From Demequina sp. NBRC 110057 (lineage in GTDB: Bacteria; Actinomycetota; Actinomycetes; Actinomycetales; Demequinaceae): 64,000 bases of DNA. The translations under genes were made by a program, and so were the position numbers. Positions within the stretch are counted from its first letter, which is position 1; each line of letters opens with the position of its first letter. Shown here one piece after another: positions 4-62,737 of this stretch. Below the pieces are notes generated by a model that saw only the letters and a list, made by a program, of their open reading frames with translations, had not been told where the DNA came from and did no database searches. Location of the stretch: positions 124,001 through 188,000 of the forward strand of contig NZ_BBRN01000005.1 of NCBI RefSeq assembly GCF_002090175.1, given 5' to 3'.

Positions 4-2415
4 TTACTTCGCGGCGGCCGCGGCGGCCGTCGCCTCGAGCTCGCGGCGCAGGCGCTTTGAGGTGGACAGGTTGCGGAAGAAGGCACCCACGAGGCCCCCG
101 AATCCGCGGAAGAAGTGGCCGTTGACGATGCGCACGATCTGCTCGACCATCGGCGTCGACACGGAGCCGTTGGTCATCTTGCCGATCGCGCGGAACGGCA
201 TGTTGTACAGGAAGTACAGGTTGAGGTCGGGCTTGCCCTTGCGCTCCGAGCGGTCGATCAGCGAGCGCAGGATCCTCGCGGCAAGGCGGGCCAGCGGGCT
301 CGTCGCGTCGTGCATGGCGCGCACCGGGTCGTTGAGGCCCAGGTCTCCGGACTGTGCGGTCGTGAGCGGGCGGCCCAGCAGCGCCTGGAACTCGGCGTCG
401 CTCACGTGCTTGATGGCGCCTGACGCGTACGACGGCAGGTCCGTCGCGGGGGCCGATGCCGGCGTCCCGTCGACAGTGTGGGTGGCGACGAGCGGGTGCT
501 CGACGCTCGAGCGCCCCACGAGAATCTCGTACTCACCGGACTCGGTGACCCAGGCATCGGCCGCGGCGTCGAAGTGGCGGAACGTGTGGCGGTCGAACGG
601 GATCGTCACGCGCGCCGTCTCGCCGGGCTCGAGGCGCACCTTGCAGAAGCCCTTGAGCTCGATCGCGGGGCGGATCGCGCCGTCGGACACGCGGCGCACG
701 TACAGCTGCGCCACGTCGGCGGCGGCGACGTCGCCGGTGTTGGTGACGGCGAAGGACGCGCCGGCCTCGGTCACGGACAGGTCCGCGTACGCGAAGGTCG
801 AGTAGCTGAGGCCGAAGCCGAACGGGAAGCGCACGTCCACGCCGGCCGTGGCGTAGTAGCGGTAGCCCACGTACAGGCCCTCGCGGTACTCGGCGGAGGG
901 GCCGGTCGCGGGGTACGAGAACGCGGTGGGCGTGTCCTCGAGCGCGTGGGGGTAGGTCTCGGCGAGGCGGCCAGAGGGGCTCGCCTGGCCGGTCAGTAGG
1001 TCGACGATGCCCTCGGCACCGGCCTGGCCGCCCAGGTAGCCGTGGAGGATCGCCGCGGCGTCCTCGACCCACGGCATCTCGATGACGGAGCCGGCGGACA
1101 GCACCACGACGATGCGGTCGGTGACGTCGCGCAGGCGCGCCAGCAGGTCGGTCTGGGCGGCGTGAAGCTTGAGGTGCTCGCGGTCCTTGCCCTCGGACTC
1201 GGCGACCTCGTCGAGGCCCAAGTAAAGGAGCACGACGTCGGCACCCATCGCGGCATCGGCCGCCTGCGCGGCGAGGGCGTCATTGGGGGTGCCGTCGCGC
1301 TCGAAGCCGGGCGAGTAGGAGACCACGTCGAGGCCGGAGGCCCGCAGCGCCTCCAGCGGCGTCGACAGCCGCGTCGCGTTGACGAGCGAGGAGCCGGCGC
1401 CCTGGTAGCGCGGGGTCTCGGCGAAGTCGCCGATGACAGCGACGCGCGTCGCGGGGGCCAGCGGCAGCGTGGAGTTCTCGTTGCGCAGCAGGACGGCCGT
1501 CTCGCGCGCCACGCGGCGGGCGAGCGCGTGGTGCGCGTCGGCGTCGACCTTCTTGGCACGCGACCCGTCGACCCAGGAGCCGAGGCTCGCGAGCTCGGCG
1601 ACCCTCGCGTCGAGGTCCTCCATGCTGAGCTCGTGGTGGTCGAGCGCGTCGAGGATGGCGGGCACGGAGTCGAGGCCCGGCGAGGGCATCTCCAGCCCGC
1701 CGCCCGCGCGGATCGCGGCCGGGGCGTCGTTGCCGCCGCCCCAGTCGGTGATGACGGCGCCGTCGAAGCCCCACTCGTCGCGCAGGATGTCGCTCAGCAG
1801 GTGGGCGTTCTCGTGGGCGTAGGTGCCGTTGACCTTGTTGTACGCGGACATCACCACGCGCGGCGATGCCTCGCGCACCACGATCTCGAAGCCGGTGAGG
1901 TAGATCTCGCGCAGGGTGCGCTCGTCCACCACGGAGTCGGACGCCATGCGGCGCAGCTCCTGACTGTTGGCCGCGAAGTGCTTGGGGCTCGCCGCGATCC
2001 CCTGCGACTGGATGCCCCGCACGTAGCCGGCGGCGAGGTGCCCCGCGAGGTACGGGTCCTCGGAGAAGTACTCGAAGTTGCGGCCGCACAGCGGCGAACG
2101 CTTGACGTTGAGCCCGGGGCCGAGCACCACGTCGACGCCCTGGTCGGCGGCCTCCGCGCCGAGCGCCTCGCCGATCTCCTCGGCGAGCGACGGGTCCCAT
2201 CCATTCGCGACGGTGGCGGCCGTGGGGAAGCAGGTCGCGGGCTGGGAGGCGGCGATGCCGAGGTGGTCGCCCGAGCCGGTCTGCTTACGCAGGCCGTGGG
2301 GGCCATCGGCGAAGAAGAGGGAGCGGATCCCGGCGTGAGGGAACGCACGCGACTGCCAGATGTTCTCGCCGCTCAGCAGCGCGGCCTTCTCGAGGGCTGT
2401 CAGCTCGTGGGACAT
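4..2415 (-). CDS. Glycoside hydrolase family 3 (beta-glucosidase-like), cytoplasmic
   Basis: Exo-acting family 3 glycosidase releasing terminal sugars from beta-linked oligosaccharides. Canonical domain order is visible: a TIM barrel with SPKHFAANSQE (K145/H146 from the chosen start) and the nucleophile loop ITDWGG (D224), an alpha/beta sandwich containing AESEGKDREHL, then a Fn3-like domain after FGFGLSYSTF and a basic C-terminal extension. No signal peptide is seen, unlike the other two GH3 genes of the operon, so it probably acts on imported oligosaccharides. ATG 2415 is chosen because GGAG lies 8 nt upstream; the in-frame extension to 2526 would read through a hairpin and is low-complexity Arg/Pro. 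Exact substrate is not readable from sequence. Confidence 0.9.
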   Translation of the reverse strand: MSHELTALEKAALLSGENIWQSRAFPHAGIRSLFFADGPHGLRKQTGSGDHLGIAASQPATCFPTAATVANGWDPSLAEEIGEALGAEAADQGVDVVLGPGLNVKRSPLCGRNFEYFSEDPYLAGHLAAGYVRGIQSQGIAASPKHFAANSQELRRMASDSVVDERTLREIYLTGFEIVVREASPRVVMSAYNKVNGTYAHENAHLLSDILRDEWGFDGAVITDWGGGNDAPAAIRAGGGLEMPSPGLDSVPAILDALDHHELSMEDLDARVAELASLGSWVDGSRAKKVDADAHHALARRVARETAVLLRNENSTLPLAPATRVAVIGDFAETPRYQGAGSSLVNATRLSTPLEALRASGLDVVSYSPGFERDGTPNDALAAQAADAAMGADVVLLYLGLDEVAESEGKDREHLKLHAAQTDLLARLRDVTDRIVVVLSAGSVIEMPWVEDAAAILHGYLGGQAGAEGIVDLLTGQASPSGRLAETYPHALEDTPTAFSYPATGPSAEYREGLYVGYRYYATAGVDVRFPFGFGLSYSTFAYADLSVTEAGASFAVTNTGDVAAADVAQLYVRRVSDGAIRPAIELKGFCKVRLEPGETARVTIPFDRHTFRHFDAAADAWVTESGEYEILVGRSSVEHPLVATHTVDGTPASAPATDLPSYASGAIKHVSDAEFQALLGRPLTTAQSGDLGLNDPVRAMHDATSPLARLAARILRSLIDRSERKGKPDLNLYFLYNMPFRAIGKMTNGSVSTPMVEQIVRIVNGHFFRGFGGLVGAFFRNLSTSKRLRRELEATAAAAAAK

Positions 2416-2481
2416 ATCGTTCGCTCCAGACGGGGACCGAGGGGGACGCGCGGGGCGTCGCGGGAAGAAGGAAGGGGTGGC

Positions 2482-2522
2482 GGTGCCGGGCCGGCGGGAG
2501 GGGGAGGTGCCGGCCCGGCACC
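2482..2522 (-). repeat. Intercistronic hairpin
   Basis: Perfect 13-bp inverted repeat (GGTGCCGGGCCGG, 2482-2494, pairing with 2510-2522) around a 15-nt loop, 11 bp downstream of the membrane-anchored GH3 gene. No T-tract follows on the minus strand, so it looks like an mRNA 3'-end stabiliser or partial terminator rather than a classic terminator. Confidence 0.6.
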
Positions 2523-2532
2523 GCACGGTGCG

Positions 2533-5532
2533 TTACGCGGTGGCGTCCGCCGTGGGCGCGGCCTGCTCGGCCTTGCCGCTGTGGCGACGGACCCGCACGA
2601 CCATCCAGGCGATGGTGCCGGCGAGGCCAAGGCCGATCACGACAGTCGACACGATCTGGATGACGACCCACGTCGGGGGCGTGTAGTCCACGGTCGCGCC
2701 GGGGGCGAGGCCGTTCATCGCGTTCGAGTTGGCGACCGTGTACAGGATGTTGTGGGTCGCGTTGCGGATGTCGGTGACCGCCTTGGCCGACGACGTGTCG
2801 CCGAAGGACTTGGACGGCTGGAACGTCAGCGTGAGGTCCGTGCCCGCGCTGATGCCCTCGTTCGGGTTCATGTACGGGTACAGGTTGAAGTCGGAGATCG
2901 CGAAGCCGTCGAAGCCCCACTCCTCGCGCAGGACGGTGTCCATCAGCGCCTCGGAGCCGCCGGCCCAGGTGGCGCCGATGCGGTTGAAGGAGCTCATCAT
3001 GCCGCCGAGGCCCACGGTCGTGGTCTCGGTGGTGCCCTCGTCGTCGGCGAGGTAGGTGACGTCCATCGTGACGTCGTCCACCAGCATCTCGAAGGGCTTG
3101 AGGTAGATCTCGCGGATCGTCTGCTCGGTGGCCCAGGTGGAGATGCCGTTGTTGACGCGGTTGGTCTCCTGCTCGTTCATCGCGTAGTGCTTGACGAGGA
3201 CGTACACGCCCTTGTCCGCGACGCCGTTGGCGACCGACGTCGCCATCGCGCCCGAGAGCAGCGGGTCCTCCGAGTAGTACTCGAAGTTACGGCCGCCGAA
3301 CGGCGAGCGGTGCAGGTTCACCGCGGGGGCGTACCAGCCGTTGATGCCCTTGAGGAGCGCCTCATTGCCGAGCATCTCGCCCATGGCGGCGCCGAGGTCG
3401 GTGTCCCAGGTCTGCGCGATGAGCACCTCGGAGGGGTAGGCCACGCCGTTGATCGACGAGTTGATGAAGGAGGAGAAGCCCGCGGGGCCGTCCGGCTCCA
3501 GGGTCTGGGGCTTGCCGATCGAGCCGATGGGCGCGGTCTGGTAGGCGCCGTTGAGGAGCATGTCCGTCATCTCGCCCACGGTCAGGGAGTCGAGAAGCTC
3601 GTCCCACGCGGGGTCGTCCTTGTCGAGACCGCGCATGTCGATCAGCGACAGGTCGCTGTCCGCACCGGTCGTGGGCATGTCACCCTCGAAGGCGTCGGCG
3701 GCATCGTCGTAGTCCCAGGCCTCGAAGCCCTCGACGATCGCCTCGGAGGCGACGTAGTCGTCACCCTCGGGGGCGGTCGGGAAGGTGCCTGCGAAGTCGG
3801 CACGCGACATGATCTGGACGGTGCCGTCGGCACCATTGGCCGTCAGCTGAGCGGAGACGTCGTCGAACTGGTTGGTCGCCGCGACCTCGTCGGTGCTGCG
3901 GGGGTTCGACTCGTCGTAGACGATCGTCTCGTCGACCGTGTAAGCGATCGGCTCGATGCCCTCGGGCATGGTGTGCGAGTCCGACTGGACGCGGATCTCG
4001 TAATCGCCCGCCTCGAGGACGTAGGCGCCGGCCTCCTGGTAGTCGTAGGACGCCATGTCCTCGACGTTGAACGTCAGGGTGACGGTCTCGGAGGCGCCGG
4101 GCTCGATGGTGCCGGTCTTCACGAAGTCGGTGAGGACCACCTCGGCCTTCTCGATGCCGCCGGCCGTGTAGGGAGCGTTGACGTAGACCTGGACCACGTC
4201 CTTGCCCGCGACGTCGCCGGTGTTGGTCACGGTGACGTCCACGGAGATCTCGCCGTCGACGTCGCCCAGCTGCGAGCCGGCGACCTCCCACGCGAAGTCC
4301 GTGTAGGACAGGCCGTAGCCGAACGGGTAAACCACTGCCTCGTCGTAGTCGATGAAGCCCTCGACCGCGGCGGTCTCGTAGTAGCGGTAGCCGAAGTAGA
4401 TGCCCTCGGCGTAGTTCACGAACGGCGCCTCGGAGGTGACCGTCGCGTTCGACGTCGCGGACTCGGTGGCGGACACGGGGTACGAGGCCTCGATGTTCTC
4501 GTAGATGTCCGAGCCGAAGTTGACCCAGGTGGGGTCGGCGGTGAAGTCGCGCGACCACACGTCAACGGTGTGACCCGAGGGGTTCACGTCGCCGGCGAGG
4601 ATGTTGCCCAGGCCGTTGAAGGCCGTGGCACCGGGCGAGCCGGCAAGGAGGATGGCGTCGACGCCCTCGTCGTCCTGCAGGTCGCCGAGCTCGAGGGTGG
4701 TCGAGGCGTTGATGACGACCACGACGGTCTCGAAGTTCTCCTCGGCGAGCGCGATGAGGGCCTTCTCGTCCTGGTTCAGCTCGAGCTGGTGCTCGCCCTC
4801 CTGGGCGCGGGGGTCGGTGTTGTCCGGGTTGGGGATGTCGAGCATGTCCTGCGCGAGGTCACCGCCCTCACCACCCGGACGGCCGATGAAGACCACGCCG
4901 GCGTCGCCGTACTCCGCGAACGAGGACTGGTGCGCCTCGTACTCCTCGACAGGCAGCTCGCCGATCGTGTAGGTGGAGTCCAGGGGCAGGTCCATCTCGA
5001 TGTGGCCGCGCTTGTTCTCCTGCGCGTACGCGTCGATGGTCTGGTAGACCTCGTCGTTGATGGAGAAGCCCGCGTTCTCGAGACCGGTGCGCGCGTCGAC
5101 GGCGGTCGTGGTGTCGACCGAGCCGGAGCCTGCGCCACCGAAGACGGGGTCGGCCGCCGCGCGGCCCAGCATGGTCAGGTTCGAGGACTTCTCGAGCGGG
5201 AGCGCGTCGCCCTCGTTCTTGGCGAGGACGATGCCCCCGTCGCCGATGTCCTCGACGAGGTCACGTGCGGCGACGTCGACCTCGTCCATGTCCGAGTAGT
5301 CGGACTCGTAGTACTCGGTGTCCCACCCCTCCGACTCCTCGGAGTTGGTGAAGGTGTAGGTGCCCGAGCCGAACTGCGAGGCGACCCAGCCGCCCGCGAT
5401 GACGAGCGCCATGTTGGCGACGATCAGGATCGCGGTCACGAAGGCGACGACGGGGATCCAGATCGAGAGGAATTTCTTGTTGGACATGGGCGCCTTGACG
5501 GCTGCCGTGTCCTTCGACGCTCGTGCGTTCAC
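2533..5532 (-). CDS. Membrane-anchored GH3 glycosidase with permuted domain order
   Basis: A 999-residue family 3 glycosidase whose domains are in reversed order. After an N-terminal membrane segment (about residues 24-50) comes the alpha/beta sandwich (roughly 90-350, VLAKNEGDALPLE), then YPFGYGLSYTDF and a Fn3-like domain (about 390-500), and only then the TIM barrel (about 640-950) with LEPDGPAGFSS, GRNFEYYSEDP, VLVKHYAMNEQE and the nucleophile-type loop FDGFAISDF. A second membrane helix (WVVIQIVSTVVIGLGLAG) and a basic tail close the protein. Reversed GH3 order is known from some Ruminococcus and Butyrivibrio beta-glucosidases. The two membrane anchors place the large catalytic part outside the cell. 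Third gene of the operon. Confidence 0.85.
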   Translation of the reverse strand: MNARASKDTAAVKAPMSNKKFLSIWIPVVAFVTAILIVANMALVIAGGWVASQFGSGTYTFTNSEESEGWDTEYYESDYSDMDEVDVAARDLVEDIGDGGIVLAKNEGDALPLEKSSNLTMLGRAAADPVFGGAGSGSVDTTTAVDARTGLENAGFSINDEVYQTIDAYAQENKRGHIEMDLPLDSTYTIGELPVEEYEAHQSSFAEYGDAGVVFIGRPGGEGGDLAQDMLDIPNPDNTDPRAQEGEHQLELNQDEKALIALAEENFETVVVVINASTTLELGDLQDDEGVDAILLAGSPGATAFNGLGNILAGDVNPSGHTVDVWSRDFTADPTWVNFGSDIYENIEASYPVSATESATSNATVTSEAPFVNYAEGIYFGYRYYETAAVEGFIDYDEAVVYPFGYGLSYTDFAWEVAGSQLGDVDGEISVDVTVTNTGDVAGKDVVQVYVNAPYTAGGIEKAEVVLTDFVKTGTIEPGASETVTLTFNVEDMASYDYQEAGAYVLEAGDYEIRVQSDSHTMPEGIEPIAYTVDETIVYDESNPRSTDEVAATNQFDDVSAQLTANGADGTVQIMSRADFAGTFPTAPEGDDYVASEAIVEGFEAWDYDDAADAFEGDMPTTGADSDLSLIDMRGLDKDDPAWDELLDSLTVGEMTDMLLNGAYQTAPIGSIGKPQTLEPDGPAGFSSFINSSINGVAYPSEVLIAQTWDTDLGAAMGEMLGNEALLKGINGWYAPAVNLHRSPFGGRNFEYYSEDPLLSGAMATSVANGVADKGVYVLVKHYAMNEQETNRVNNGISTWATEQTIREIYLKPFEMLVDDVTMDVTYLADDEGTTETTTVGLGGMMSSFNRIGATWAGGSEALMDTVLREEWGFDGFAISDFNLYPYMNPNEGISAGTDLTLTFQPSKSFGDTSSAKAVTDIRNATHNILYTVANSNAMNGLAPGATVDYTPPTWVVIQIVSTVVIGLGLAGTIAWMVVRVRRHSGKAEQAAPTADATA

Positions 5533-5630
5533 GTCGGGACTCCTTCAGAGGTGAGGGGTGACGGGCGGTTGGGAAAAGTCTGGGGGGAGGCGGCGGGGCC
5601 GGCCAGTGCGGTGGGCACCGGCTGCGCTGC

Positions 5631-5655
5631 CCGCCCGGCCGCGGGGGCCGGGCGG
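5631..5655 (-). repeat. Intercistronic hairpin
   Basis: Perfect 10-bp inverted repeat CCGCCCGGCC/GGCCGGGCGG with a 5-nt loop, 23 bp downstream of the small lipoprotein gene. Same arrangement as the hairpins behind the neighbouring exported-protein genes. Confidence 0.5.
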
Positions 5656-5677
5656 ACGCGCCGCGGGAGGGTCGGAG

Positions 5678-6094
5678 TTACTCCGTGACCTCGGAGATGG
5701 TGCCGTCCTGGTCGATCTGCCAGGTCTCGCCGGTCGCGGCCGACTCGGCCTCGATCACGTAGTTGCCGCCGTCGATGTTCACGGTGCCGGTGACGTGCTC
5801 CACCGCGTCGGTGGGGACGTAGGGCATGACGAGCAGGCCGTACTTCTGGGTGGGCGACTCGACGTCGGATGCGAGCATGACCTGGGTCCAGCTCGGGTCC
5901 TCGGCGAGCGCCTCGTCGACGGCGGCCTTCGCGGTCTCGAGGTCCGCGGCGACGTCGACGGTGGTCTCCTCGGAGACCTCGGTGTCGGTGCTGGCGCCCG
6001 CGTCAGAGTCGCTCGAGCAGGCCGTGAGGCCGAAGGCACCGGTGGCGGCGATCACGAACGCGAGGCCGCCAGCCCGCATCTTCTTGGTGTTCAT
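5678..6094 (-). CDS. Small lipoprotein of unknown function
   Basis: 138 residues with a lipoprotein signal peptide (MNTKKMRAGG start, hydrophobic core, lipobox LTAC) followed by an acidic Ser/Thr/Glu-rich linker and a small folded domain ending WQIDQDGTISEVTE. I do not recognise the domain; its short beta-strand-rich layout (YGLLVMPY, GNYVIEAE) is only loosely PepSY-like. It lies between the lipoprotein GH3 and the membrane-anchored GH3 of the same operon, 109 and 145 bp from them, so a surface role in sugar binding or enzyme assembly is an inference. A strong AAGGAG-type site precedes the ATG. Confidence 0.7.
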   Translation of the reverse strand: MNTKKMRAGGLAFVIAATGAFGLTACSSDSDAGASTDTEVSEETTVDVAADLETAKAAVDEALAEDPSWTQVMLASDVESPTQKYGLLVMPYVPTDAVEHVTGTVNIDGGNYVIEAESAATGETWQIDQDGTISEVTE

Positions 6095-6156
6095 TTCTTA
6101 CTCCTTCAGTGTCGGTCGGGACGGGTGTCCCGGCCCAGGGTGGTGAGGGCGGTGAG

Positions 6157-6181
6157 GGCCGGGGAGCATCGCTCCCCGGCC
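6157..6181 (-). repeat. Intercistronic hairpin
   Basis: Perfect 11-bp inverted repeat GGCCGGGGAGC/GCTCCCCGGCC with a 3-nt loop, 23 bp downstream of the lipoprotein GH3 gene; no T-tract. Confidence 0.55.
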
Positions 6182-6203
6182 GCCACCGCACCGGGGTGAG
6201 GCG

Positions 6204-8606
6204 TTACTCGGAGATGACGCCCGAGTAGTTGAGGCCGAAGCCGAACTTCCAGTCGTTGCCGTCGGCGTCGACCCAGGTCTCGTAGTCCTCGCCGACGTCC
6301 TCGTTCTGGGCCTCGACGGTGTCCATGTCGACCGGGAAGCCGATGGGGAGACGGCCCTGGGGCTCGTGCTCACCGGCGGCCACCGTGAGGGTCGCGAGGT
6401 CGCTCACGCCGAAGCCGACGAGAACCGCGTTGGAGGCCTCCTCGAACTCGGCGGGAACCACCGGGTTGTTGGCCTTGACCACGGTCACGACGGGGATGTC
6501 GCCGCCGGCGGCCTCGACGGCCTCCGTCGCGCGGTTGAACGCGTCAATGTCGGCCTCGTTCGAGATGCGCGAGGTGTTGCCGAAGTACGAGCGGTTCTCC
6601 TTGGAGCCGTCCTCGAGGGTGTCTCCACCGATGGACTCGGTGCGGACGTTGTCACCGTCGGCGGTGTACTCCGCCCACTGCAGCGAGAACGGGTACCACT
6701 CGCCGGTCTCGGCATCCTGACCAGCAGCGGTGAAGGGCTCGCCGTTGTTGGGGGAACGCAGGCCTACGAGGACCAGGTCGACGTCGGTGAGGTCGGGCGC
6801 CGTCATCGAGGTGACCTTGCCATCCTTGTCGTACTCGACGGTGTCGGTGACGACCGTGCCGAACAGCTCCTGGGCGGACTCGACCGAGAGGGTCGCGCCC
6901 TCCGTGTAGGTGGCGTCGCCGAAGAGGCCGGCGTGGCCGGTGTCGTAGGTGTGAGGGATGTAGACCGTCTTGTCGGACCAGTCGGCGTCGGCCGAGATGG
7001 TGCCGTCGTTCTTCACCATGACCACGGAGTCCAGCTGGGCGTCGAAGCCGGCCTGGACGGCCTCCTCCGAGCCGACGGTCTCCAGCGCCTCGTCGAGGTC
7101 GACGAACGGGCTGTCGAAGAGCCCGGGTGCGAAGTACGCGGTGAGGATGCGGGTGCCGGAGTCGCGCCAGCGGGTGTCGGCGTCGACGTCGATCTCGCCG
7201 GCCTCGTAGCGCTCGGTCCACAGGTCGTAGGCCTCGAGGATGAGGGTGGCGTCGTTGACGCCGCCGAACATGTCGACGCCGTTGGCGAGGACGCGGTAGT
7301 AGCGCTCGACGGGCTCGATGTCCTCGGCGCCCCAACCGGTGGCGATGAAGGCACCCTCGTCGCCCTGAGCGCTCATGACGCCCCAGTCGGTGACGATGGC
7401 GCCGGTGAAGCCGATGTCCTCGCGGATGTAGTTGAGGGTCTCCTCGTTGTAGGCGGTGCCCACTGCCTCGTCACCGAACAGCGGGTTGCCCTCGCCGTCG
7501 AGCTGAATCGAGTAGTTGGTCATCATGCCGAGCGAGTCCGACGCCGCCTCGAAGACGGACGCGTGCTCGTCGACGTTGTCGCCGGGGAAGACGCCGTACT
7601 TACCCACCGAGGTGTGCGACTCGCGGCCGCCCTCGCCCGCGCCGTCGCCGGGCGCGTGCTTGATGGTGGTGGGCACCGAATCGAGACCGAAGCCGAGGTT
7701 GTTGCCCTCGTCGTCGTAGGTCGACTGGAAGCCGGTCACGTAGGCCGCGGCGAGCTCCGACGCCAGGTCGGCATTCTCACCGAGCGTGCCCGACACGCGC
7801 AGCCAGCGCGGCTCCGTCGCGAGGTCGATCTGGGGGCTGAGCGCGTTCGAGATACCGAGCGAGCGGTACTCCTCGGAGACGACGCGACCGAAGTCCTCCA
7901 TGGTTTCCGCGTCGAACGTCGCGGCGAGGCCCAGGACCGACGGCCACAGGGACACGCCGGCGCCGGTCTCGACGTAGCTCGAGCCGGACTGCGCCTCGGA
8001 ACGGGGGTCGGAGGAGAAGTTGGCGGGGATGTACGGGTTGTCCTCGGTCGCGAGGGTCTCGACATACGCCTGCATCTCGTTGACCCAGGTGACGTTTTCC
8101 TCGGTGTCGGAGCCGCCCGCGTTCAGCACGTTGCGCAGGTGGGACTCGGACAGGTAGGTCTCCTGGGGCTCGGTCAGGCCGTCGCCGGGCGACGACTCGT
8201 GCGAGCTGAAGAGCATGAGGCCCGAGATCTGCTCGGCGGAGAGGTCGGCCGACAGGTCGGCGGCGCGCTCGGTCGCCTCGAGGCGCCAGTCCTCAAACGC
8301 GTCGAGTTCGCCGTTGGCGTTCATGTCCTTGAAGGCGAGGGTCTGGCCATCGACTTCCTCCTCAAGCAGCGTCATGCCGCCGTCCTTGGAGTACGACAGC
8401 TGGGCGCCACCGTCGGGGTTCGTGACGATGGTGAACTCGGTGGTGCCGTCGGTGACGTCACGCGTGGTGTAGTCGCCGGTCGCCTCGGCGGTCTCGCTGG
8501 CGCTGGTCTCGGGTGCCGGGTCCTCAGAATCGCCCGAGCAGCCCGCGACCGCGAGCGCGAAGATGCCAAAGAACGCAGTGGAGCGTGCGATACGTGATGC
8601 CCTCAT
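6204..8606 (-). CDS. Surface lipoprotein GH3 glycosidase
   Basis: 800-residue family 3 glycosidase, first gene of the operon. The N-terminus has a lipoprotein signal (lipobox AVAGC) and an acidic Ser/Glu-rich spacer. The TIM barrel carries TTIKHAPGDGAGEGGRESH and the nucleophile loop FTGAIVTDWGVMS; the C-terminal alpha/beta sandwich contains VLVGLRSPNNGEPF and VVTVVKANNPVVP. The spacing and KHAPGDG motif differ from the two other GH3 proteins here, so it belongs to a distinct GH3 subgroup, probably with another linkage preference. The start is supported by AGGAGGTGA 7 nt upstream. It would be tethered to the outer face of the membrane and release sugars from extracellular glycans. Confidence 0.88.
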   Translation of the reverse strand: MRASRIARSTAFFGIFALAVAGCSGDSEDPAPETSASETAEATGDYTTRDVTDGTTEFTIVTNPDGGAQLSYSKDGGMTLLEEEVDGQTLAFKDMNANGELDAFEDWRLEATERAADLSADLSAEQISGLMLFSSHESSPGDGLTEPQETYLSESHLRNVLNAGGSDTEENVTWVNEMQAYVETLATEDNPYIPANFSSDPRSEAQSGSSYVETGAGVSLWPSVLGLAATFDAETMEDFGRVVSEEYRSLGISNALSPQIDLATEPRWLRVSGTLGENADLASELAAAYVTGFQSTYDDEGNNLGFGLDSVPTTIKHAPGDGAGEGGRESHTSVGKYGVFPGDNVDEHASVFEAASDSLGMMTNYSIQLDGEGNPLFGDEAVGTAYNEETLNYIREDIGFTGAIVTDWGVMSAQGDEGAFIATGWGAEDIEPVERYYRVLANGVDMFGGVNDATLILEAYDLWTERYEAGEIDVDADTRWRDSGTRILTAYFAPGLFDSPFVDLDEALETVGSEEAVQAGFDAQLDSVVMVKNDGTISADADWSDKTVYIPHTYDTGHAGLFGDATYTEGATLSVESAQELFGTVVTDTVEYDKDGKVTSMTAPDLTDVDLVLVGLRSPNNGEPFTAAGQDAETGEWYPFSLQWAEYTADGDNVRTESIGGDTLEDGSKENRSYFGNTSRISNEADIDAFNRATEAVEAAGGDIPVVTVVKANNPVVPAEFEEASNAVLVGFGVSDLATLTVAAGEHEPQGRLPIGFPVDMDTVEAQNEDVGEDYETWVDADGNDWKFGFGLNYSGVISE

Positions 8607-8761
8607 CAGAGCGTCACCTCCTGGGTGTGGATCATGCTGCTTCTCCTCCTTGAGTCGCTGGCGCTGCCCTCAGCCGGGCACCGCAGATCGGACGTCGTCA
8701 GGCCCGCACCGCGCGAGCCCCGCATCCCTGGCCGCCGCGTCCCGGGGGCGTCAGTGCCGAG

Positions 8762-8778
8762 GTGACCTCGATGTGACC
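8762..8778 (-). promoter_or_regulatory. GGTCAC direct repeat pair
   Basis: Two GGTCAC units on the minus strand (8762-8767 and 8773-8778) exactly 11 bp apart, about 160 bp upstream of the GH3 start codon. The left unit also sits in the small palindrome GAGGTGACCTC. Confidence 0.45.
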
Positions 8779-8881
8779 TGACGCAGCAGAAAAGGATGTG
8801 TCACGAGTGAAACAAGGCGGATGTGTGCCCGTGATCTCGCGGACACAACCTGTCGGTGAGGGCGCACGATCTGTCGTCGGC

Positions 8882-8919
8882 GTGACCCGAGCGTGACCCG
8901 TCGTGACCGTTCCGTGACC
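8882..8919 (-). promoter_or_regulatory. Four phased GGTCACG direct repeats (OmpR/PhoP-type box)
   Basis: Minus-strand GGTCACG units begin at 8919, 8908, 8898 and 8887, giving spacings of 11, 10 and 11 bp, one helical turn each. Head-to-tail 11-bp units of this form resemble Streptomyces PHO boxes (GKTCAYYYRSG), bound by the OmpR-family regulator PhoP. Which regulator binds here is inference. Confidence 0.5.
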
Positions 8920-8932
8920 TACCAGCGGTCAG

Positions 8933-8946
8933 CAAAACGTTTCGAT
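8933..8946. promoter_or_regulatory. LacI-type operator candidate
   Basis: CAAAACGTTTCGAT with the AAACGTTT palindrome typical of LacI-family operators. A near copy (AAAACGTTTCAAT) lies upstream of the sugar-binding protein gene at 26171-26183, suggesting a shared sugar-responsive repressor. Confidence 0.45.
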
Positions 8947-8961
8947 AGCAGGGGCGATGCG

Positions 8962-9834
8962 TCAGGCGCGACGCACGCGCAGATCGCCGGCAAGCACCTC
9001 GCGCTCGCCGTCGCGGGTCACCACGAGCAGCGCGCCGGAGGCCGACAGGCCCGTGACGCGGCCGGCCACGGACTCGCCTCCCGGCTGCTCCACGGTGATG
9101 TCCCAGCCGATCGACGCGCACACTCCCTCGACGGCGTCGTGGACCCGCGGCAGGTCGGCGTCGAGTTCCCACATGGCCACCGCATCGGTCAGGTGGGCAG
9201 TGAGCGAGCGCATGAGCGCCACGCGGTCGAGCGAGGCGGCGCCGAGCGTCGACAGCGACGCGGCGTGCGGCACGGGAAGCTCGCCCGCGGACTGCGACAC
9301 GTTGATGCCGATGCCGGCCACCACGGCCGGCCCCGCCTCGGACTGCACCGAGCCCGGCACCACCTCGCACAGGATCCCCACCACCTTGCGCCAGCGTCCC
9401 CAACCGGGAATCTCCTTGGCTCCGGCCTCGACCACCACGTCGTTGGGCCACTTGAGGTACGCGCCCACCCCGGCGTCGCGCAGCGCCCGCACCGTCGCGA
9501 GGCCCACGACGAGCGGGGCCCAGCCGAGAGCATCGGCCGCGACCGAGGGACGCAGCAGAAAGGACACGGTGAGGGCGGCCCCCTGGGGCGTCGCCCACGA
9601 GCGCCCGGCGCGGCCGCGGCCGGCGGTCTGGTGGTCGGCCAGCAGCGCCGACATCCCCGGCCACTCGTCGGGGGCGGCGGAGGTCGCGGCGAGCAGCGCC
9701 GTGTTGGTCGAGGGCGAGGCCGCCACGACGTCGAGCCGACCCAGTTGGCGGGACGGCCCCACCACGCCGGCCAGGGCATCGGCCGTGAGGGGCGCGCGCG
9801 AGGCGGCAACGGCTGAGGGCGACTCGGGGTTCAC
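8962..9834 (-). CDS. birA: Biotin--[acetyl-CoA-carboxylase] ligase
   Basis: Class I biotin protein ligase (290 residues, no N-terminal DNA-binding domain) that attaches biotin to the BCCP domain of the acyl-CoA carboxylase alpha chain encoded at 35041-36819. The ATP/biotin loop reads TAGRGRAGRSWATPQGAALT, the catalytic-domain strand YLKWPNDVVV carries the key lysine, and GIGINVSQS follows. It is divergent from pccB with only 38 bp between start codons, as in mycobacteria. Confidence 0.93.
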   Translation of the reverse strand: MNPESPSAVAASRAPLTADALAGVVGPSRQLGRLDVVAASPSTNTALLAATSAAPDEWPGMSALLADHQTAGRGRAGRSWATPQGAALTVSFLLRPSVAADALGWAPLVVGLATVRALRDAGVGAYLKWPNDVVVEAGAKEIPGWGRWRKVVGILCEVVPGSVQSEAGPAVVAGIGINVSQSAGELPVPHAASLSTLGAASLDRVALMRSLTAHLTDAVAMWELDADLPRVHDAVEGVCASIGWDITVEQPGGESVAGRVTGLSASGALLVVTRDGEREVLAGDLRVRRA

Positions 9835-11704: not shown

Positions 11705-12321
11705 GGGCGGCTCGCGGAGTTCTCGGCGTGGGTGCGGCCCTGGGGGCGGCGCTCGCGGCGCCGCAGGTTTTTGCGCGCGTGAGTGCCGTGGGGGCGCTGC
11801 ACCCCGCGGCCTCGGGTGACTTTCGGGCGGCCGATGCCGCACTCGTGCTGGGTGCGCGGGTGTGGGAGGACGGGCGGCCCAGCCTGTTCCTGCGCCAGCG
11901 CGTCGAGGCGGGGGTCGCCCTCTACGAGCGGGGCCTGGTGCCGCGGCTCGTGATGACGGGGGCCGGCCACAACCGCGAGGGCCTCGACGAGACGGAGGCG
12001 ATGGAGCGCACTGCCCGCGAGCTGGGCGTTCCTTCCGCGGACATCGTCAGGGACCCGGGCGGCCACGACACCCGCGCATCGGCCCTCAACGCCCGCGACA
12101 ACCTGGGGCTGGCCAGCGTGGTGGTGTGCTCGCAGGAGTTCCACCTGCCGCGCGCCATGTGGCTGTGCAGGTCGGTGGGGCTCGAGGTCCAGGGCGCGTT
12201 TCCGCCCATCCTCGCGAAGCCCCATACGGTCCTGGGCTACGGCCGCGAGCTGCCGGCCACGTGGAAGGCCGCGCTCGAGATCGGGCGCGACGCGCTGCCC
12301 GGCAGCGACGCCGCGCCCTGA
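11701..12321 (+). CDS. SanA/YdcF-like DUF218 protein
   Basis: 206 residues from GTG 11701, overlapping accE by GTGA. A hydrophobic Ala/Gly-rich N-terminus (probable membrane anchor or signal) precedes the DUF218 domain: ALVLGARVWEDGRPS, RLVMTGAG, DTRASALNARD and VVVCSQEFHLPRAMWLCRSVG. The family includes E. coli SanA, linked to envelope barrier function; its biochemical activity is not established. It is the first gene of the block that separates accE from maf. Confidence 0.8.
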   Translation: MRAARGVLGVGAALGAALAAPQVFARVSAVGALHPAASGDFRAADAALVLGARVWEDGRPSLFLRQRVEAGVALYERGLVPRLVMTGAGHNREGLDETEAMERTARELGVPSADIVRDPGGHDTRASALNARDNLGLASVVVCSQEFHLPRAMWLCRSVGLEVQGAFPPILAKPHTVLGYGRELPATWKAALEIGRDALPGSDAAP

Positions 12322-13806: not shown

Positions 13807-13855
13807 GGTGCTCCTTGGGTGTTGCCGGGTCGCCGACCCGGCCACGGCATCGGCC

Positions 13856-53449: not shown

Positions 53450-54538
53450 TCACCCGGGAAGCGCGACGTCCTTCACGCGCTGCGCGGCGGGGCGCCGCGT
53501 CACCAGGATCGCCTCGTCGGTCTCGACCACCACGGCATCGGCGATCCCCACGACGGCGAGCGGCTTGGTGCCGCCCACGACCACCGCACCGTCGGCGTCC
53601 ACGAGCGACACCGGCGACGTGCGGCCGATGCGGATGGCACCGTCGTCCCCCGCCGTCAACAGAGAGGCGAGCGAGTCGAAGTCGCCCACGTCGTGCCAGG
53701 GGAAGTCACCGGGCACCATCGCCACGCCGCCCTCGGCCGCGACGGGCTCGGCGATCGCGTGGTCGATAGCGATCTTGGTCAGGGTGGGCCACACACGCGC
53801 CAGCACGTCGTCGCGCTCGGGGCTGTCCCACGCTGCGGCGATCTCCCGCACGCCGGTGGCGAGAGTCGGCTGGAGACGCGACAGGTGCGCCAGCAGCACC
53901 GAGGTGGACACCACGAACATTCCCGCGTTCCACGAGTAGCCCCCCTCCGCGAGCATCGCGGCGGCGGCCCCCTCGTCGGGCTTCTCCGTGAAGGCCTCCA
54001 CCGCAAAGGCGCCCGGCGCCTCGGCGAGACCCTGTCCCGCCTTGATGTAGCCGAACGCGCTCGAGGGGGCATCGGGCGTGATGCCGATGGTCACCACCTT
54101 TCCGGTGCGGGCGGCCACGACGGCGGTGCGCACCGCGGCGCGGAACGGCTCGGCCTCGGGGATGACGTGATCGGCGGCGAAGGACGCGAGGATCCGCTCG
54201 CCGTGACGAGCCTCGATGACCGCGGCCGCGAGCGCGATGGCGGCCATCGAGTCCCGCGGGCTCGGCTCGGCGATGATCGCATCGCGACCCAGGTCGGGAA
54301 GCTGCTCCGCCACGGCATCGGCGTGTCGAGCGCCCGTGACCACCACCACATCGGCCGTGAGCGGCGCGAGGCGCGCGACGGTGTCCTGGATCAGCGTGGC
54401 GCCGGAATCGAGGAGGTCGATGAGGAACTTGGGTCGCGTGGGCTGCGACAGGGGCCACAGGCGCGACCCCACACCCCCCGCGGGCACGACGGCGACAAGA
54501 TCGTGTACGAAATCATTGGGGGTGGCCTCAGCGGTCAT
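53450..54538 (-). CDS. manC: Mannose-1-phosphate guanylyltransferase
   Basis: 362-residue nucleotidyltransferase making GDP-mannose from mannose 1-phosphate and GTP. AVVPAGGVGSRLWPLSQPTRPKFL is the GTP-binding signature, with IAEPSPRDSMAAIALAA, FTEKPDEG, YSWNAGMFV and PWHDVGDFDSLASLL. It lacks the C-terminal isomerase domain of bifunctional ManC. Divergent from sdhC; supplies mannosyl donors for envelope glycans. Confidence 0.9.
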   Translation of the reverse strand: MTAEATPNDFVHDLVAVVPAGGVGSRLWPLSQPTRPKFLIDLLDSGATLIQDTVARLAPLTADVVVVTGARHADAVAEQLPDLGRDAIIAEPSPRDSMAAIALAAAVIEARHGERILASFAADHVIPEAEPFRAAVRTAVVAARTGKVVTIGITPDAPSSAFGYIKAGQGLAEAPGAFAVEAFTEKPDEGAAAAMLAEGGYSWNAGMFVVSTSVLLAHLSRLQPTLATGVREIAAAWDSPERDDVLARVWPTLTKIAIDHAIAEPVAAEGGVAMVPGDFPWHDVGDFDSLASLLTAGDDGAIRIGRTSPVSLVDADGAVVVGGTKPLAVVGIADAVVVETDEAILVTRRPAAQRVKDVALPG

Positions 54539-55414: not shown

Positions 55415-57190
55415 ATGGCTATCGAGCACGAGTACGACGTCGTCATCGTGGGAGCGGGCGGTGCCGGCATGCGCGCCGCCCTGGAGAGCTCCCAGCGGGC
55501 CCGCACGGCGGTCATCACGAAGCTGTACCCCACGCGTTCGCACACGGGCGCGGCGCAGGGCGGCATGGCCGCCGCGCTCGCCAATGTCGAGGACGACAAC
55601 GCCGAGTGGCACACCTTCGACACCGTCAAGGGCGGCGACTACCTGGTGGATCAGGACGCGGCGGAGATCCTGTGCAAGGAGGCCATCGACGCGGTCCTCG
55701 ACCTCGAGAAGATGGGCCTTCCCTTCAACCGCACGCCCGAGGGCAAGGTGGACCAGCGCCGCTTCGGCGGCCACACCCGCGAGCACGGCGAGGCTCCCGT
55801 GCGTCGCGCCTGCTACGCCGCGGACCGCACCGGCCACATGATCCTGCAGACGCTCTACCAGCAGTGCATCAAGCAGGAGGTCGAGTTCTTCAACGAGTTC
55901 TACGCGCTCGACCTCATCCTCGACGGTGACCCGCAGGCCGCGGGCGAGGACGGCGAGGTGTCCGCCTCCGGCGTCGTCGCGTACTCGCTCGCCTCGGGCG
56001 AGGTGCACACGTTCCGTGCGAAGTCGATCATCTTCGCCACGGGCGGCGCCGGCAAGGTCTTCAAGACCACATCGAACGCCCACACCCTGACCGGCGACGG
56101 CATGGGCATCGCGCTGCGCGCCGGCATCCCGCTCGAGGACATGGAGTTCTTCCAGTTCCATCCCACAGGCCTCGCGGGCCTCGGCATCCTGCTGTCCGAG
56201 GCCGCTCGCGGCGAGGGCGGCATCCTGCGCAACTCCGAGGGCGAGCGCTTCATGGAGCGCTACGCCCCCACCATCAAGGACCTCGCGCCGCGCGACATGG
56301 TGGCGCGCGCGATGGCCAACGAGGTGCGCGAGGGTCGCGGCTGCGGGCCGCACAAGGACTACGTGCTCCTCGACCTCACGCACCTGGAGCCGGCGCACAT
56401 CGACGAGAAGCTGCCGGATATCACGGAGTTCGCCCGCACCTACCTGGGCGTCGAGCCCTACACGGAGCCCGTGCCGGTGTTCCCCACCGCGCACTACGCG
56501 ATGGGCGGCATCCCCACGAACGTCCAGGGCGAGGTGCTGCGCGACAACACCCACGTGATCAAGGGCCTGTACGCGGCCGGCGAGTGCGCGTGCGTGTCGG
56601 TGCACGGCGCCAACCGCCTGGGCACCAACTCGCTGCTCGACATCAACGTGTTCGGCCGCCGGGCAGGCATCGCCGCCGCGGAGTACGCCAACGGCGTGAC
56701 TGAGATCCCCTCCCTGCCGGCCGATGCCTCGGCCAGGCTCGAGGAGACCGTCGCCTCGCTGCGGGCCACCGTGGGCGGCGACGGCACCGAGCGGGTGGCG
56801 CAGCTGCGTAAGGAGCTGCAGGAGACCATGGACCGCAACGTCCAGGTGTTCCGCACCGCCGAGTCGCTCGCCGAGGCCCACGCCGTCGTCAAGGACCTGC
56901 AGGAGCGCTACAAGTCCATCGCGATCCACGACCGTGGCACGCGCTTCAACACCGACCTGCTCGAGGCCATCGAGCTGGGCTTCCTGCTGGAGCTGTCCGA
57001 GGTGGTTGTGGCTGGCGCGGAGGCCCGCAAGGAGTCCCGCGGCGGCCACTACCGCGAGGACTTCCCCACGCGTGACGACGAGAACTTCATGCAGCACACC
57101 ATGGCCTACAAGCGCGCCGACGGCACCGTCGACCTGGACTGGAAGCCCGTCGTGGTGACCAAGTACCAGCCGATGGAGCGCAAGTACTAA
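55415..57190 (+). CDS. sdhA: Succinate dehydrogenase flavoprotein subunit
   Basis: 591-residue catalytic subunit oxidising succinate to fumarate. FAD site [15 protein letters not shown]; covalent-FAD histidine H43 in [24 protein letters not shown] and [11 protein letters not shown]; active-site Arg/His region [13 protein letters not shown] and [21 protein letters not shown]. Full length, complex II of the respiratory chain and TCA cycle. Confidence 0.95.
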
Positions 57191-58067: not shown

Positions 58068-58844
58068 TCACCACTGGCTTTCGGGGTCGCAGTACCACTG
58101 GCCCGTGGGCATGCCGCGTCCGCCGCAGTCCAGGGCGAACTCCTCGTACTCGGTGCCGGTGGTGGTCGACCAGTAGAGCTCGTCGCACGCGGCATCGTCG
58201 CCCGCGCCGCACTGGTCGTACAGGGCGTCGAGCGTCGGGTCGTCGCCGTAGGCCTGGGCGTCCGAGTTGTAATAGTCGGAACCCCAGTCACCGTCCTCGA
58301 TGGTCTCCTGGACGCGGTCCGCCACGTCGAGGCTGGCCACGATGGCGCCGGTGATGACGGCGGTCCAGGCGATCGTTCCGAGGATGCCGAGGACGAGTCC
58401 CGTCACGGCCATCCAGGTGCCCTTGCGCGCCCCCTGTGCGGTGCGGCGCAGTCCCATCGCGCCCAGCACGATCGCGACGAAGGCGAGGCTCAGCAGGCCG
58501 GTCACGAGCGCGGCGATGGACACCCCGTCGGTGCCGCGCTGCTGTGACGGCGTCCCGTATGGCGCCGAGCCGTACTGAGTGGTGCCGTACTGCGACGCGT
58601 CGCCCATGGGGGGCGCCACGTAGGGGCCCGGCTGCCCGGCCGGAGCCGCGTACGGGGAGGCGGAGGCATCGGCCTGTCCGTAGGAGTGCTGGGTGTACCC
58701 CGGCGAGCCGGCGTCGGCCTGAGGGGCCCACGACGGCGCCGGCTCCTGCCCGTACGGGGCGGGGGTCACGGGCATCGGCTCGGTGACCGGCACGTCGGAC
58801 CGGGACCCCGACGAGGGGTTCTTAAAGGGGTCGGTATCGGTCAC
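58068..58844 (-). CDS. DUF4190 domain membrane protein
   Basis: 258 residues. A disordered Pro/Ala/Tyr/Gln-rich N-terminus (~105 residues), then two hydrophobic helices typical of DUF4190 (VSIAALVTGLLSLAFVAIVL, GLRRTAQGARKG loop, WMAVTGLVLGILGTIAWTAV), and an acidic extracytoplasmic tail with four cysteines (CGAGDDAACDEL, LDCGGRG, YCDPES) likely to form disulfides. Function unknown; possibly a septum- or envelope-associated protein. Confidence 0.7.
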   Translation of the reverse strand: MTDTDPFKNPSSGSRSDVPVTEPMPVTPAPYGQEPAPSWAPQADAGSPGYTQHSYGQADASASPYAAPAGQPGPYVAPPMGDASQYGTTQYGSAPYGTPSQQRGTDGVSIAALVTGLLSLAFVAIVLGAMGLRRTAQGARKGTWMAVTGLVLGILGTIAWTAVITGAIVASLDVADRVQETIEDGDWGSDYYNSDAQAYGDDPTLDALYDQCGAGDDAACDELYWSTTTGTEYEEFALDCGGRGMPTGQWYCDPESQW

Positions 58845-61355: not shown

Positions 61356-61372
61356 CGGACTATTGTGCCTCG

Positions 61373-62737
61373 CTACGGCTGCTCGTAGGTCACCTCGTCG
61401 CTCGAGCCGAGCGTGACGGTGATGTCCTCGGACGAGTCGCCGTGCTGGACGGTGAGGGTGACCTCGTCGCCCGCCGCCTTCGCGCGGATCGCGACGATGA
61501 GCTCGTCGGTCTGAGTGATGGGGCGGCCGTCGATCGCGGTGATGACGTCGCCGGGCTCGATGCCGGCGGCATCGGCCGGGCCACCCTCGACCACGCCGGT
61601 GGAGTCGTCGACCACCTGGACGCCCTCGCCGGTGTAGCGGCCGTCGAGTTGCACGCCGATGACGGGGTACGTGGCCTCGCCGTTCTCGATGAGCTGCTCG
61701 GCGGTGCGCTGCGCCTGGTTCGACGGAATCGCGAAGCCCAGGCCGATCGACCCGGTCTCGGACGATGTACCGGACAGCGTGGCGATCGCGGAGTTGACAC
61801 CGATCACCTCGCCCTTCGCGTTCAGCAACGGGCCACCGGAGTTGCCCGGGTTGATCGCGGCGTCGGTCTGCAGGGCGTCGATGTATGCCTGCGTCTGGGT
61901 GTCGCCCGCGGTGACGGGGCGGTGCATCGACGACACGATGCCGGTCGTGACCGTCCCCTCGAGGCCCAGCGGCGAGCCGACCGCGATGGTCGCGTCCCCC
62001 ACCACCACCTCGTCGGAGTCGGCGAAGGTCAGCGGGGTGAGGCCGTCGAGATCGACGTGGATCACGGCGAGGTCGTAGTCGGCGGTGGTGCCCACGATCT
62101 CCGCGTCGTGCTCGGACCCGTCGGAGAACACGACGGTGATCGCGGTGGCGCCGTCGACCACGTGGTTGTTGGTGAGGATGTAGCCGTCCTCCTGGATGAC
62201 GAAGCCCGAACCGGTGGCGGAACCGCCCTCCATGGTGGACTCGATGGACACCACCGACGGCATGACCGCCGCGGCCACCGAGGCGACGGAGCCGGCGTCG
62301 CGGTCGACGGACTCGCCCTCCGACACCGACAGCGAGGCGCTGGGCGAGCCCCACTCGTCGTACGCCCACGCTCCCGCGAACCCTCCGCCGAGCCCGAGCA
62401 GCAGCGCGCCGACGGCGATTCCCGCCACCGCTCCGGCACCCGCGCCGCGCTTCTTCTCCTTCACGGGCGCGGCGGGAGCCGCATACCCGGAGCCGTCGTA
62501 GGCGGGCTGCGCCGTGGACATGGTGCCGTCACTCGCGGGTGTCAGGGGCGCCGCGGCCGGCTGCTCCGACGCGGGGTGGCTGGCCACCGGGTGGGCCGCC
62601 GTGGGCGCCACCTCGGGCTCGGACGGCGCCGCGTGCGTGGGGATGACCTCGGTGTCCTCGTGGCGAGCGGCGGCGTCGCCGTTGCCGTTGCTGGGGCGGT
62701 TGTCGCCGTTCGGGGACGCGAAGGGGTTGTCAGTCAT
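61373..62737 (-). CDS. htrA: HtrA/DegP-like serine protease with PDZ domain
   Basis: 454 residues. Disordered cytoplasmic N-terminus (~95), one membrane helix (about 98-126), trypsin-like domain with H192 (NNHVV), D222 (DYDLAV) and S300 (INPGNSGGP), then a PDZ domain (GIEPGDVITAIDGRPIT). Extracytoplasmic quality-control protease. Lies downstream of the sigma/anti-sigma pair, so probably induced by envelope stress. Confidence 0.93.
   Translation of the reverse strand: MTDNPFASPNGDNRPSNGNGDAAARHEDTEVIPTHAAPSEPEVAPTAAHPVASHPASEQPAAAPLTPASDGTMSTAQPAYDGSGYAAPAAPVKEKKRGAGAGAVAGIAVGALLLGLGGGFAGAWAYDEWGSPSASLSVSEGESVDRDAGSVASVAAAVMPSVVSIESTMEGGSATGSGFVIQEDGYILTNNHVVDGATAITVVFSDGSEHDAEIVGTTADYDLAVIHVDLDGLTPLTFADSDEVVVGDATIAVGSPLGLEGTVTTGIVSSMHRPVTAGDTQTQAYIDALQTDAAINPGNSGGPLLNAKGEVIGVNSAIATLSGTSSETGSIGLGFAIPSNQAQRTAEQLIENGEATYPVIGVQLDGRYTGEGVQVVDDSTGVVEGGPADAAGIEPGDVITAIDGRPITQTDELIVAIRAKAAGDEVTLTVQHGDSSEDITVTLGSSDEVTYEQP

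What the first reader, a model, noticed from the sequence alone, without database searches (positions are those of the whole stretch)
451..61577. Over-represented 9-mer GGCCGATGC / GCATCGGCC scattered through the window
Reading both strands I found 38 copies, starting at 451, 1253, 9530, 9776, 11829, 13847, 15285, 18950, 19134, 19263, 20174, 20602, 20771, 20946, 21997, 27577, 29864, 30065, 32192, 32680, 34338, 34866, 36438, 38782, 39811, 40265, 40284, 40291, 43034, 44598, 45575, 46098, 47757, 50374, 53623, 56719, 58666 and 61569. A base-composition model with an assumed 70% GC predicts about two on both strands. In genes it is read mainly as GCC GAT GCC (Ala-Asp-Ala) or GCA TCG GCC (Ala-Ser-Ala), sometimes as ATC GGC, using GAT and GCA although GAC and GCC/GCG dominate elsewhere. 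Six copies are intergenic, so codon choice alone does not explain it. It is absent from 1262-9529 and 22006-27576. It behaves like cyanobacterial HIP1: a genome-wide tag, a methylation or repair site, or a segregation motif.
Basis: partly seen in the sequence, partly recalled or inferred. Interest (0 to 1): 0.85.

Follow-up and report, generated by a model that had tools for sequence, protein, structure and literature searches.

The report
A Gram-positive DNA uptake sequence (predicted)
The genome of this environmental bacterium (genus Demequina) carries about 2,000 copies of one short DNA word that looks like a self-recognition tag for taking up DNA from relatives, a trick best known from two families of Gram-negative bacteria.

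Summary
On one contig, codon-preserving shuffles give 72 coding copies against 568 observed; one-base variants together reach only 1.24x expectation.

The anatomy fits a DNA uptake sequence (like Neisseria DUS or Haemophilus USS), not HIP1. The word is non-palindromic, shows no strand skew and occurs about once per 1.35 kb. It is densest between convergent genes, partly as inverted pairs forming strong hairpins. It is intact at 52 of 92 aligned sites in a relative (median of frequent 9-mers 23.5%). In intergenic DNA it extends to about GGCCGATGCsGyGGC.

The genus is Demequina. Congeners carry related dialects: GGCCGATGC in 19 of 44 genomes, GGACGATGC in 16 (one has both), GCCCGACGCTGTGG in one. 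Some show none. The A/C split needs one change on a housekeeping-protein tree. PilB is found in 44 of 44 genomes and ComEC in 43. An orphan pilin is a weak receptor candidate.

Uptake itself is untested. My searches of open-licence papers showed no such motif reported in Actinomycetota.

The parts
451..459 (+). copy of GGCCGATGC
   Evidence: inside predicted gene 4-2415 (-)
1253..1261 (-). copy
9530..9538 (-). copy
9776..9784 (-). copy, intergenic
11829..11837 (+). copy, intergenic
13847..13855 (-). copy, intergenic
15285..15293 (+). copy
18950..18958 (+). copy
19134..19142 (-). copy
19263..19271 (-). copy
20174..20182 (-). copy
20602..20610 (+). copy
20771..20779 (-). copy
20946..20954 (+). 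copy
21997..22005 (+). copy, intergenic
27577..27585 (+). copy
29864..29872 (+). copy
30065..30073 (+). copy
32192..32200 (-). copy
32680..32688 (+). copy
34338..34346 (+). copy
34866..34874 (-). copy, intergenic
36438..36446 (+). copy
38782..38790 (-). copy
39811..39819 (-). copy
40265..40273 (-). copy, intergenic, first of a cluster of three
40284..40299 (.). two copies (40284 + and 40291 -) overlapping as an inverted pair, between divergently transcribed genes
43034..43042 (-). copy
44598..44606 (+). copy
45575..45583 (+). copy
46098..46106 (-). copy
47757..47765 (-). copy
50374..50382 (+). copy
53623..53631 (+). copy
56719..56727 (+). copy
58666..58674 (-). copy
61569..61577 (-). copy
1262..9529 (.). 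longest stretch of the window without an exact copy (8.3 kb; mean gap on contig C3 is 1.38 kb)

Best explanation
GGCCGATGC is the core of a DNA uptake sequence of a Demequina species. Inferred mechanism: naturally competent cells bind extracellular DNA through a type IV pilus whose tip or minor pilin recognises about 15 bp (GGCCGATGCsGyGGC), pull it in and pass it to ComEA and ComEC, so DNA from their own kind is taken up preferentially. Because fragments with a good copy are imported and recombined more often, alleles carrying a copy replace alleles without one. The motif thereby accumulates, on both strands, where protein sequence and intergenic space tolerate it, and is kept there. Inverted pairs at gene ends double as hairpins. 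Related species use dialects of the same core. Shown here: the motif, its density, its lack of strand bias, conservation, hairpins, dialects and the machinery genes. Inferred: competence, uptake specificity, the receptor, the drive.
For: Density: 2,018 in 2.73 Mb, 18x the reversed word; top 9-mer of 1.18 Mb by z, 842 against 74 under a third-order Markov model. Strand counts are even in all eleven segments of C3. Not codon choice: 568 against 72 (sd 8). Intergenic density is 1.41/kb against 0.62/kb coding: 3.3/kb between convergent genes, 1.84 tandem, 1.23 divergent. There are 16 intergenic head-to-head pairs within 60 bp (15 on C3, 1 in the window). The 15 on C3 fold at -20.9 to -55.7 kcal/mol. 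Maintenance: in 153 kb aligned to G026 (83.1% identity), 52 of 92 aligned copies are intact although their flanks are only 75.6% identical; the median of 836 frequent 9-mers is 23.5%, and the motif ranks 11th. Dialects: GGCCGATGC at 550 or more copies in 19 of 44 genomes, GGACGATGC at 900 or more in 16 of 44 (G018 is in both), GCCCGACGCT 31 against 0.6 expected in 80 kb of G037. G000 and G037 share a G-Y/T-G-G-C extension 3' of the core. On a housekeeping-protein tree the A/C split (15 A, 18 C rows) needs one change. Machinery: PilB, PilT-like, PilC, three pilin-like proteins and prepilin peptidase, ComEA and ComEC; ComEC in 43 of 44, PilB in 44 of 44. The same traits mark neisserial DUS: dialects congruent with phylogeny, common core, inverted pairs (PMC3630211, passages).
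Against: No uptake or transformation data exist here, and the listing (2 papers) shows no report of competence in Demequina. Complete machinery does not imply a motif: G004 and G043 (80 and 73 kb sampled) show no clear word, nor do G013, G033 and G039 in smaller samples, and Cellulomonas and other related T4P loci show none. T4P gene trees need 5 (PilB, PilT-like, PilC, PilD) to 10 (PilA) A/C changes against 1 on the species tree, so those genes do not carry the specificity in any simple way. Ten of 44 genomes have no pilin outside the T4P cluster at E <= 1e-17 (four have weaker hits), and nine of these ten carry a dialect at my thresholds. Ten other 9-mers are better conserved between G000 and G026, one of them overlapping the motif, most with few sites. 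Site turnover towards the A dialect is large: of 22 aligned G000 sites 2 are unchanged and 2 are GGACGATGC in G010. I saw no bias along the gene, unlike Pasteurellaceae (PMC2346458, passages).
Confidence: 0.82

Rival explanations
1. A HIP1-like tag: target of a methylase or of a repair or recombination enzyme, spread by biased repair, with no role in uptake.
For: Same kind of genome-wide over-representation inside genes.
Against: Not palindromic, with an asymmetric ~15-bp extension; dialects change at several core positions between congeners; enriched between convergent genes, partly as hairpin pairs. Methylation calls were not available.
Confidence: 0.07
2. The bias acts inside the cell: a motif favoured in recombination of incoming or chromosomal DNA (ComEA/RecA loading, Chi-like) rather than at the receptor.
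For: Conservation and local spread would look alike.
Against: Chi-type motifs are (recalled) strand-skewed with replication; here every segment of C3 is even. The dialect-with-common-core pattern is that of neisserial DUS.
Confidence: 0.06
3. A chromosome-organisation or segregation motif (KOPS, parS, matS type or a nucleoid protein site).
For: Spread over the whole genome.
Against: No strand skew; no regional pattern on C3 (10-kb bins, variance/mean 1.17); too many copies for parS or matS (recalled).
Confidence: 0.03
4. A by-product of composition, codon usage or of transcription terminators.
For: Some intergenic copies are arms of hairpins.
Against: Synonymous shuffle 72 against 568; third-order Markov 74 against 842; only 30 of the 745 C3 copies sit in the 15 intergenic head-to-head pairs.
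Confidence: 0.01

Closest known systems
Neisseriaceae DNA uptake sequence (DUS) and its dialects, receptor ComP
   Same: Copy number in the thousands; both strands; intergenic inverted pairs; dialects that share a short core and follow the species tree; type IV pilus, ComEA/ComEC genes; a minor pilin as receptor there, and a pilin gene outside the T4P cluster in most genomes here (passages of PMC3630211 and PMC6370729; here).
   Different: Unrelated sequence (core CGAyGC against the neisserial CTG core), Gram-positive phylum, no shown uptake, receptor unknown.
Pasteurellaceae uptake signal sequence (USS)
   Same: 9-bp core with a longer weak extension (recalled for USS), very many copies, intergenic inverted repeats (passages).
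   Different: Unrelated sequence; no AT-rich tract within 25 bp of intergenic copies here, unlike USS (recalled); no bias along the gene.
Micrococcus luteus Flp/Tad-dependent transformation
   Same: Actinomycetota with ComEA/ComEC and pilus-dependent uptake (PMC4322843, passages).
   Different: M. luteus has only Tad clusters and no other T4P genes; Demequina has a T4P cluster. 'Uptake sequence' occurs 0 times in that paper.
Cyanobacterial HIP1
   Same: Genome-wide, mostly intragenic over-represented word (recalled).
   Different: HIP1 is palindromic (recalled); this is not.

Membership tests
DNA uptake sequence (DUS/USS) | short non-palindromic word at hundreds to thousands of copies per genome | tested here: met
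   2,018 copies, 18x the reversed control
DNA uptake sequence (DUS/USS) | no orientation bias along the chromosome | tested here: met
   even in eleven segments of contig C3, 1.04 of 2.73 Mb; 1004 against 1014 genome-wide
DNA uptake sequence (DUS/USS) | intergenic inverted pairs at gene ends | tested here: met
   16 head-to-head intergenic pairs; density highest between convergent genes
DNA uptake sequence (DUS/USS) | dialects with a common core, congruent with phylogeny | tested here: met
   five sampled genomes show no clear word, one low-count genome (G036) was not sampled
DNA uptake sequence (DUS/USS) | competence machinery in the same genome | tested here: met
   T4P cluster, ComEA/ComEC, as genes only; DprA not searched
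DNA uptake sequence (DUS/USS) | sequence-specific receptor (ComP-like minor pilin) | tested here: inconclusive
   pilin gene outside the T4P cluster in 32 of 44 genomes, 2 more uncertain; nine of the ten without carry a dialect; specificity unknown
DNA uptake sequence (DUS/USS) | motif raises DNA binding, uptake or transformation | not testable with these tools
   needs cells
DNA uptake sequence (DUS/USS) | enrichment in genome-maintenance genes | not tested
   -
HIP1 | palindromic octamer (recalled) | tested here: not met
   GGCCGATGC and its extension are asymmetric
Chi / KOPS | strand skew with replication direction (recalled) | tested here: not met

The most novel reading that the evidence does not exclude
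A third, independent origin of DNA uptake sequences, the first in a Gram-positive phylum, with at least three dialects inside one genus that act as mating-type-like barriers, and a sequence-specific orphan minor pilin (G000 contig C6:227569-227997) as the receptor, evolved convergently with ComP.
Probability: 0.33. Interest if true: 0.95.

Novelty: new variant of a known kind. Interest (0 to 1): 0.86.

Why it matters
A 2016 review describes uptake sequences as a trait of several species in two families, Pasteurellaceae and Neisseriaceae (PMC5031613, passages), both Gram-negative. A Gram-positive genus with its own unrelated, dialect-forming uptake sequence would show that sequence-tagged bacterial sex evolves repeatedly. 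It would also let the open question of why such tags arise be tested in an independent replicate, without an outer membrane. Dozens of species with dialects differing by as little as one base are a natural experiment for finding the receptor and its specificity residues.

Tried and rejected
Codon choice, composition, Chi/KOPS and parS/matS explanations were rejected as above. T4P-cluster proteins as dialect carriers: quick trees of PilB, PilT-like, PilC and PilD need 5 A/C changes each and PilA 10, against 1 on the housekeeping tree, so none is a simple carrier. Pooling Cellulomonas T4P loci mainly showed words shared by homology and was not used. Per-locus counts for 59 named loci L159-L217, 3-22 kb each (58 outside Demequina plus L176, a Demequina), found at most 3 copies of GGCCGATGC in a locus. 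One pattern search used a badly chosen pattern and taught nothing. G351, a non-Demequina genome with 1,681 copies, gave only 13 copies (4.2 expected) in a 60-kb sample with no clear 3' extension, so it stays a lead. Orthologous-site comparison between dialects (G010 against G000) had too few aligned sites. PDB search of the orphan pilin matched mostly the common pilin N-terminus.
Full report
OBSERVATION. A dinucleotide shuffle gives 2.26 (largest 6 of 100). It is the window's most frequent 9-mer. The window lies in a 2.73-Mb, 7-contig genome (G000, 99.99% complete) that holds 1004 + 1014 copies against 60 + 50 of the reversed word. In 1.18 Mb of that genome it is the most over-represented 9-mer by z: 842 against 74 under a third-order Markov model. 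On contig C3 (1.04 Mb, 745 copies against 66 expected) the 27 one-base variants total 1395 against 1126 expected. Variants at positions 4-8 are close to expectation or below; several at positions 1, 2, 3 and 9 are raised 2-3x.

NOT CODON CHOICE. Gene prediction was my own simple script. Shuffling synonymous codons within each gene gives 72.3 (sd 7.8, max 89 of 100) coding copies against 568 on C3, and 4.4 (max 10 of 100) against 34 in the window. On C3 it is read mostly as Ala-Asp-Ala (304 of 568) or Ala-Ser-Ala (147 of 568). The tripeptides themselves are in excess (ADA 1.72x, ASA 1.41x; controls ADV 1.00x, AGA 0.99x, AEA 1.15x), so the motif probably shapes proteins too. There is no trend along the gene.

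WHERE IT SITS. Strands are even in each of eleven segments of C3 (ten of 100 kb, one of 39 kb), against Chi or KOPS. Intergenic density is 1.41 per kb, coding 0.62. Between convergent genes it is 3.3 per kb (35 copies), tandem 1.84 (93), divergent 1.23 (42). Neighbouring copies within 60 bp on C3 and the window number 51: head-to-head 16 intergenic and 7 not, tail-to-tail 8 intergenic and 12 not, same orientation 8. The 15 intergenic head-to-head pairs on C3 fold at -20.9 to -55.7 kcal/mol; six of them lie 7-25 bases after the predicted end of an upstream gene on the + strand. The pair in the window (40284/40291) overlaps and lies between divergent genes, so it is not a terminator. Ten-kb bins are nearly Poisson (variance/mean 1.17); the longest gap, 18 kb at C3:343625-361783, is G+C-poor (0.645) with sparse predicted genes, and one 8-kb gap holds a run of short genes that looks like a ribosomal-protein cluster (reading of these gaps is inference).

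EXTENDED MOTIF. Around 181 intergenic copies (C3 plus window) the 3' side is conserved as S-G-Y-G-G-C (offset 13 G 0.78, offset 12 G 0.69, counted from 0 at the first G) and offset -2 is R in 83%. In 194 kb of G026 the 11-mer CCGATGCCGTG occurs 44 times against 0.7 expected. So the element is about 15 bp and asymmetric, unlike HIP1 (recalled).

MAINTENANCE. In 153 kb aligned between G000 and G026 (83.1% identity) 134 copies lie in the 200 kb of G000, 92 are aligned without gaps and 52 are unchanged, although their flanks are only 75.6% identical. The median of 836 frequent 9-mers is 23.5%; GGCCGACGC is kept at 1 of 8. The word is held while its surroundings drift. This is strong but not unique: ten of the 836 score higher (for example CTCGAGCTC 16 of 22), one of which, CATCGGCCG, overlaps the motif.

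ORGANISM AND DIALECTS. GGCCGATGC reaches 550 copies or more in 19 of 44 genomes of the genus. GGACGATGC reaches 900 or more in 16 of 44 (1,864 in G021), mostly where the first is low; G018 has both. Of the ten others, G037 uses GCCCGACGCTGTGG (GCCCGACGCT 31 against 0.6, GACGCTGTGG 10 against 0.3 expected in 80 kb); G012, G027 and G034 show weaker related words; G004, G043, G013, G033 and G039 show none in 20-80 kb samples; G036 was not sampled. All words found keep CGAyGC. On a tree of four housekeeping proteins (40 genomes) the A/C split needs a single change; 15 rows were labelled A and 18 C, with G018 counted as A and the low-count G012 and G013 as C. With all five labels, the 'none' label included, 7 changes are needed (shuffled mean 18.1). 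The family search (47 genomes) finds 127, 75 and 14 copies in the three genomes outside the genus. Of 396 genomes of the order (34 Demequina, 1 other of the family, 361 outside it) only G351 outside the genus is comparable at 1,681 copies (about 400 per Mb); by my reading of the table no other exceeds about 175 per Mb, against 739 per Mb here. GGACGATGC, searched in 119 genomes of the order (9 Demequina), exceeds 400 copies only in the Demequina G042 and G018; the highest outside is 399 in G098. Only these two words were searched across the order, so other words elsewhere are not excluded.

MACHINERY. One cluster encodes PilB (MshEN + T2SSE), a PilT-like ATPase, PilC, three proteins with a pilin methylation motif (the third just under Pfam's cut-off) and a prepilin peptidase. 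Elsewhere lie ComEA (SLBB + HhH), ComEC (Competence + Lactamase_B) and HolA in a row. ComEC is found in 43 of 44 and PilB in 44 of 44 genomes of the genus, in pieces in a few. The pilin genes of the cluster are hypervariable, and trees of the cluster's genes do not follow dialect. A fourth pilin gene lies alone at C6:227569-227997. By my sorting, hits outside the T4P cluster at E <= 1e-17 exist in 32 of 44 genomes, with two more (G036, G041) uncertain because their contigs are short. Ten have none at that level (G002, G006, G007, G013, G014, G017, G023, G032, G040, G042; four of these have weaker hits), and all but G013 carry a dialect at my thresholds. Six copies could be aligned (six of those 34); they share two cysteines in the C-terminal region and an invariant HPxG, and the closest relatives share 68-70%. 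ComP, the neisserial receptor, is a minor pilin whose two disulphides are needed for DUS-specific binding (passages of PMC6370729 and PMC12616744). The orphan pilin is a candidate, not a finding.

LITERATURE. Frye et al. 2013 (PMC3630211, passages) describe eight neisserial dialects with a common three-base core, congruence with the core-genome tree, and inverted pairs tied to terminators; each has its counterpart here. A 2016 review names several species in two families, Pasteurellaceae and Neisseriaceae, as bearers of uptake sequences (PMC5031613, passages). Listings seen: uptake sequence with Actinobacteria (7 of 7 papers), Demequina with related terms (15 of 180, 2 of 2), Gram-positives (12 of 12), Actinomycetota (15 of 73), letters of the motif (1 of 1, a Ralstonia typing paper). 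None of the listed titles or abstract openings reports this motif or an actinobacterial uptake sequence. Only open-licence PMC papers were searchable.

VERDICT. A predicted DNA uptake sequence in a Gram-positive genus, with dialects. The bioinformatic signature is nearly complete; the receptor is open and the uptake experiment is missing.

Noticed in passing
window 13309 and 34095; ten places on G000 contig C3: A second interspersed element, a near-palindrome around GTCAAATGGATCCATTTGGC, between genes or at gene edges; 18 pattern hits in the G000 stretches outside the window (full palindromes count twice) and 1 in all other Demequina samples (G034). Perhaps an operator or a small repeat of this species.
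   Followed up: partly
G351 (family f11, another genus): One genome outside Demequina with 1,681 GGCCGATGC copies, about four to eight times the other members of its genus in the table; its 60-kb sample shows no clear 3' extension.
   Followed up: partly
L038 and L098-L137, T4P clusters: The pilin module between pilC and pilD is hypervariable among Demequina species, apparently of at least two types that do not match the dialects.
   Followed up: partly
T4P loci of some A-dialect genomes, e.g. L121 (G014) and L136 (G042): Only 3 copies of GGACGATGC in 20 kb although the genomes hold about 1,300; the T4P region may be poor in the motif or recently exchanged.
   Followed up: no
G000:C3:343625-361783: 18-kb stretch without the motif, G+C 64.5%, few predicted genes: possibly a recent acquisition.
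   Followed up: no
G037, G023 and G011 comEC; G023 and G011 pilB: Competence genes found in two or more pieces; could be decay or assembly errors (G011 is listed as 50% complete).
   Followed up: no
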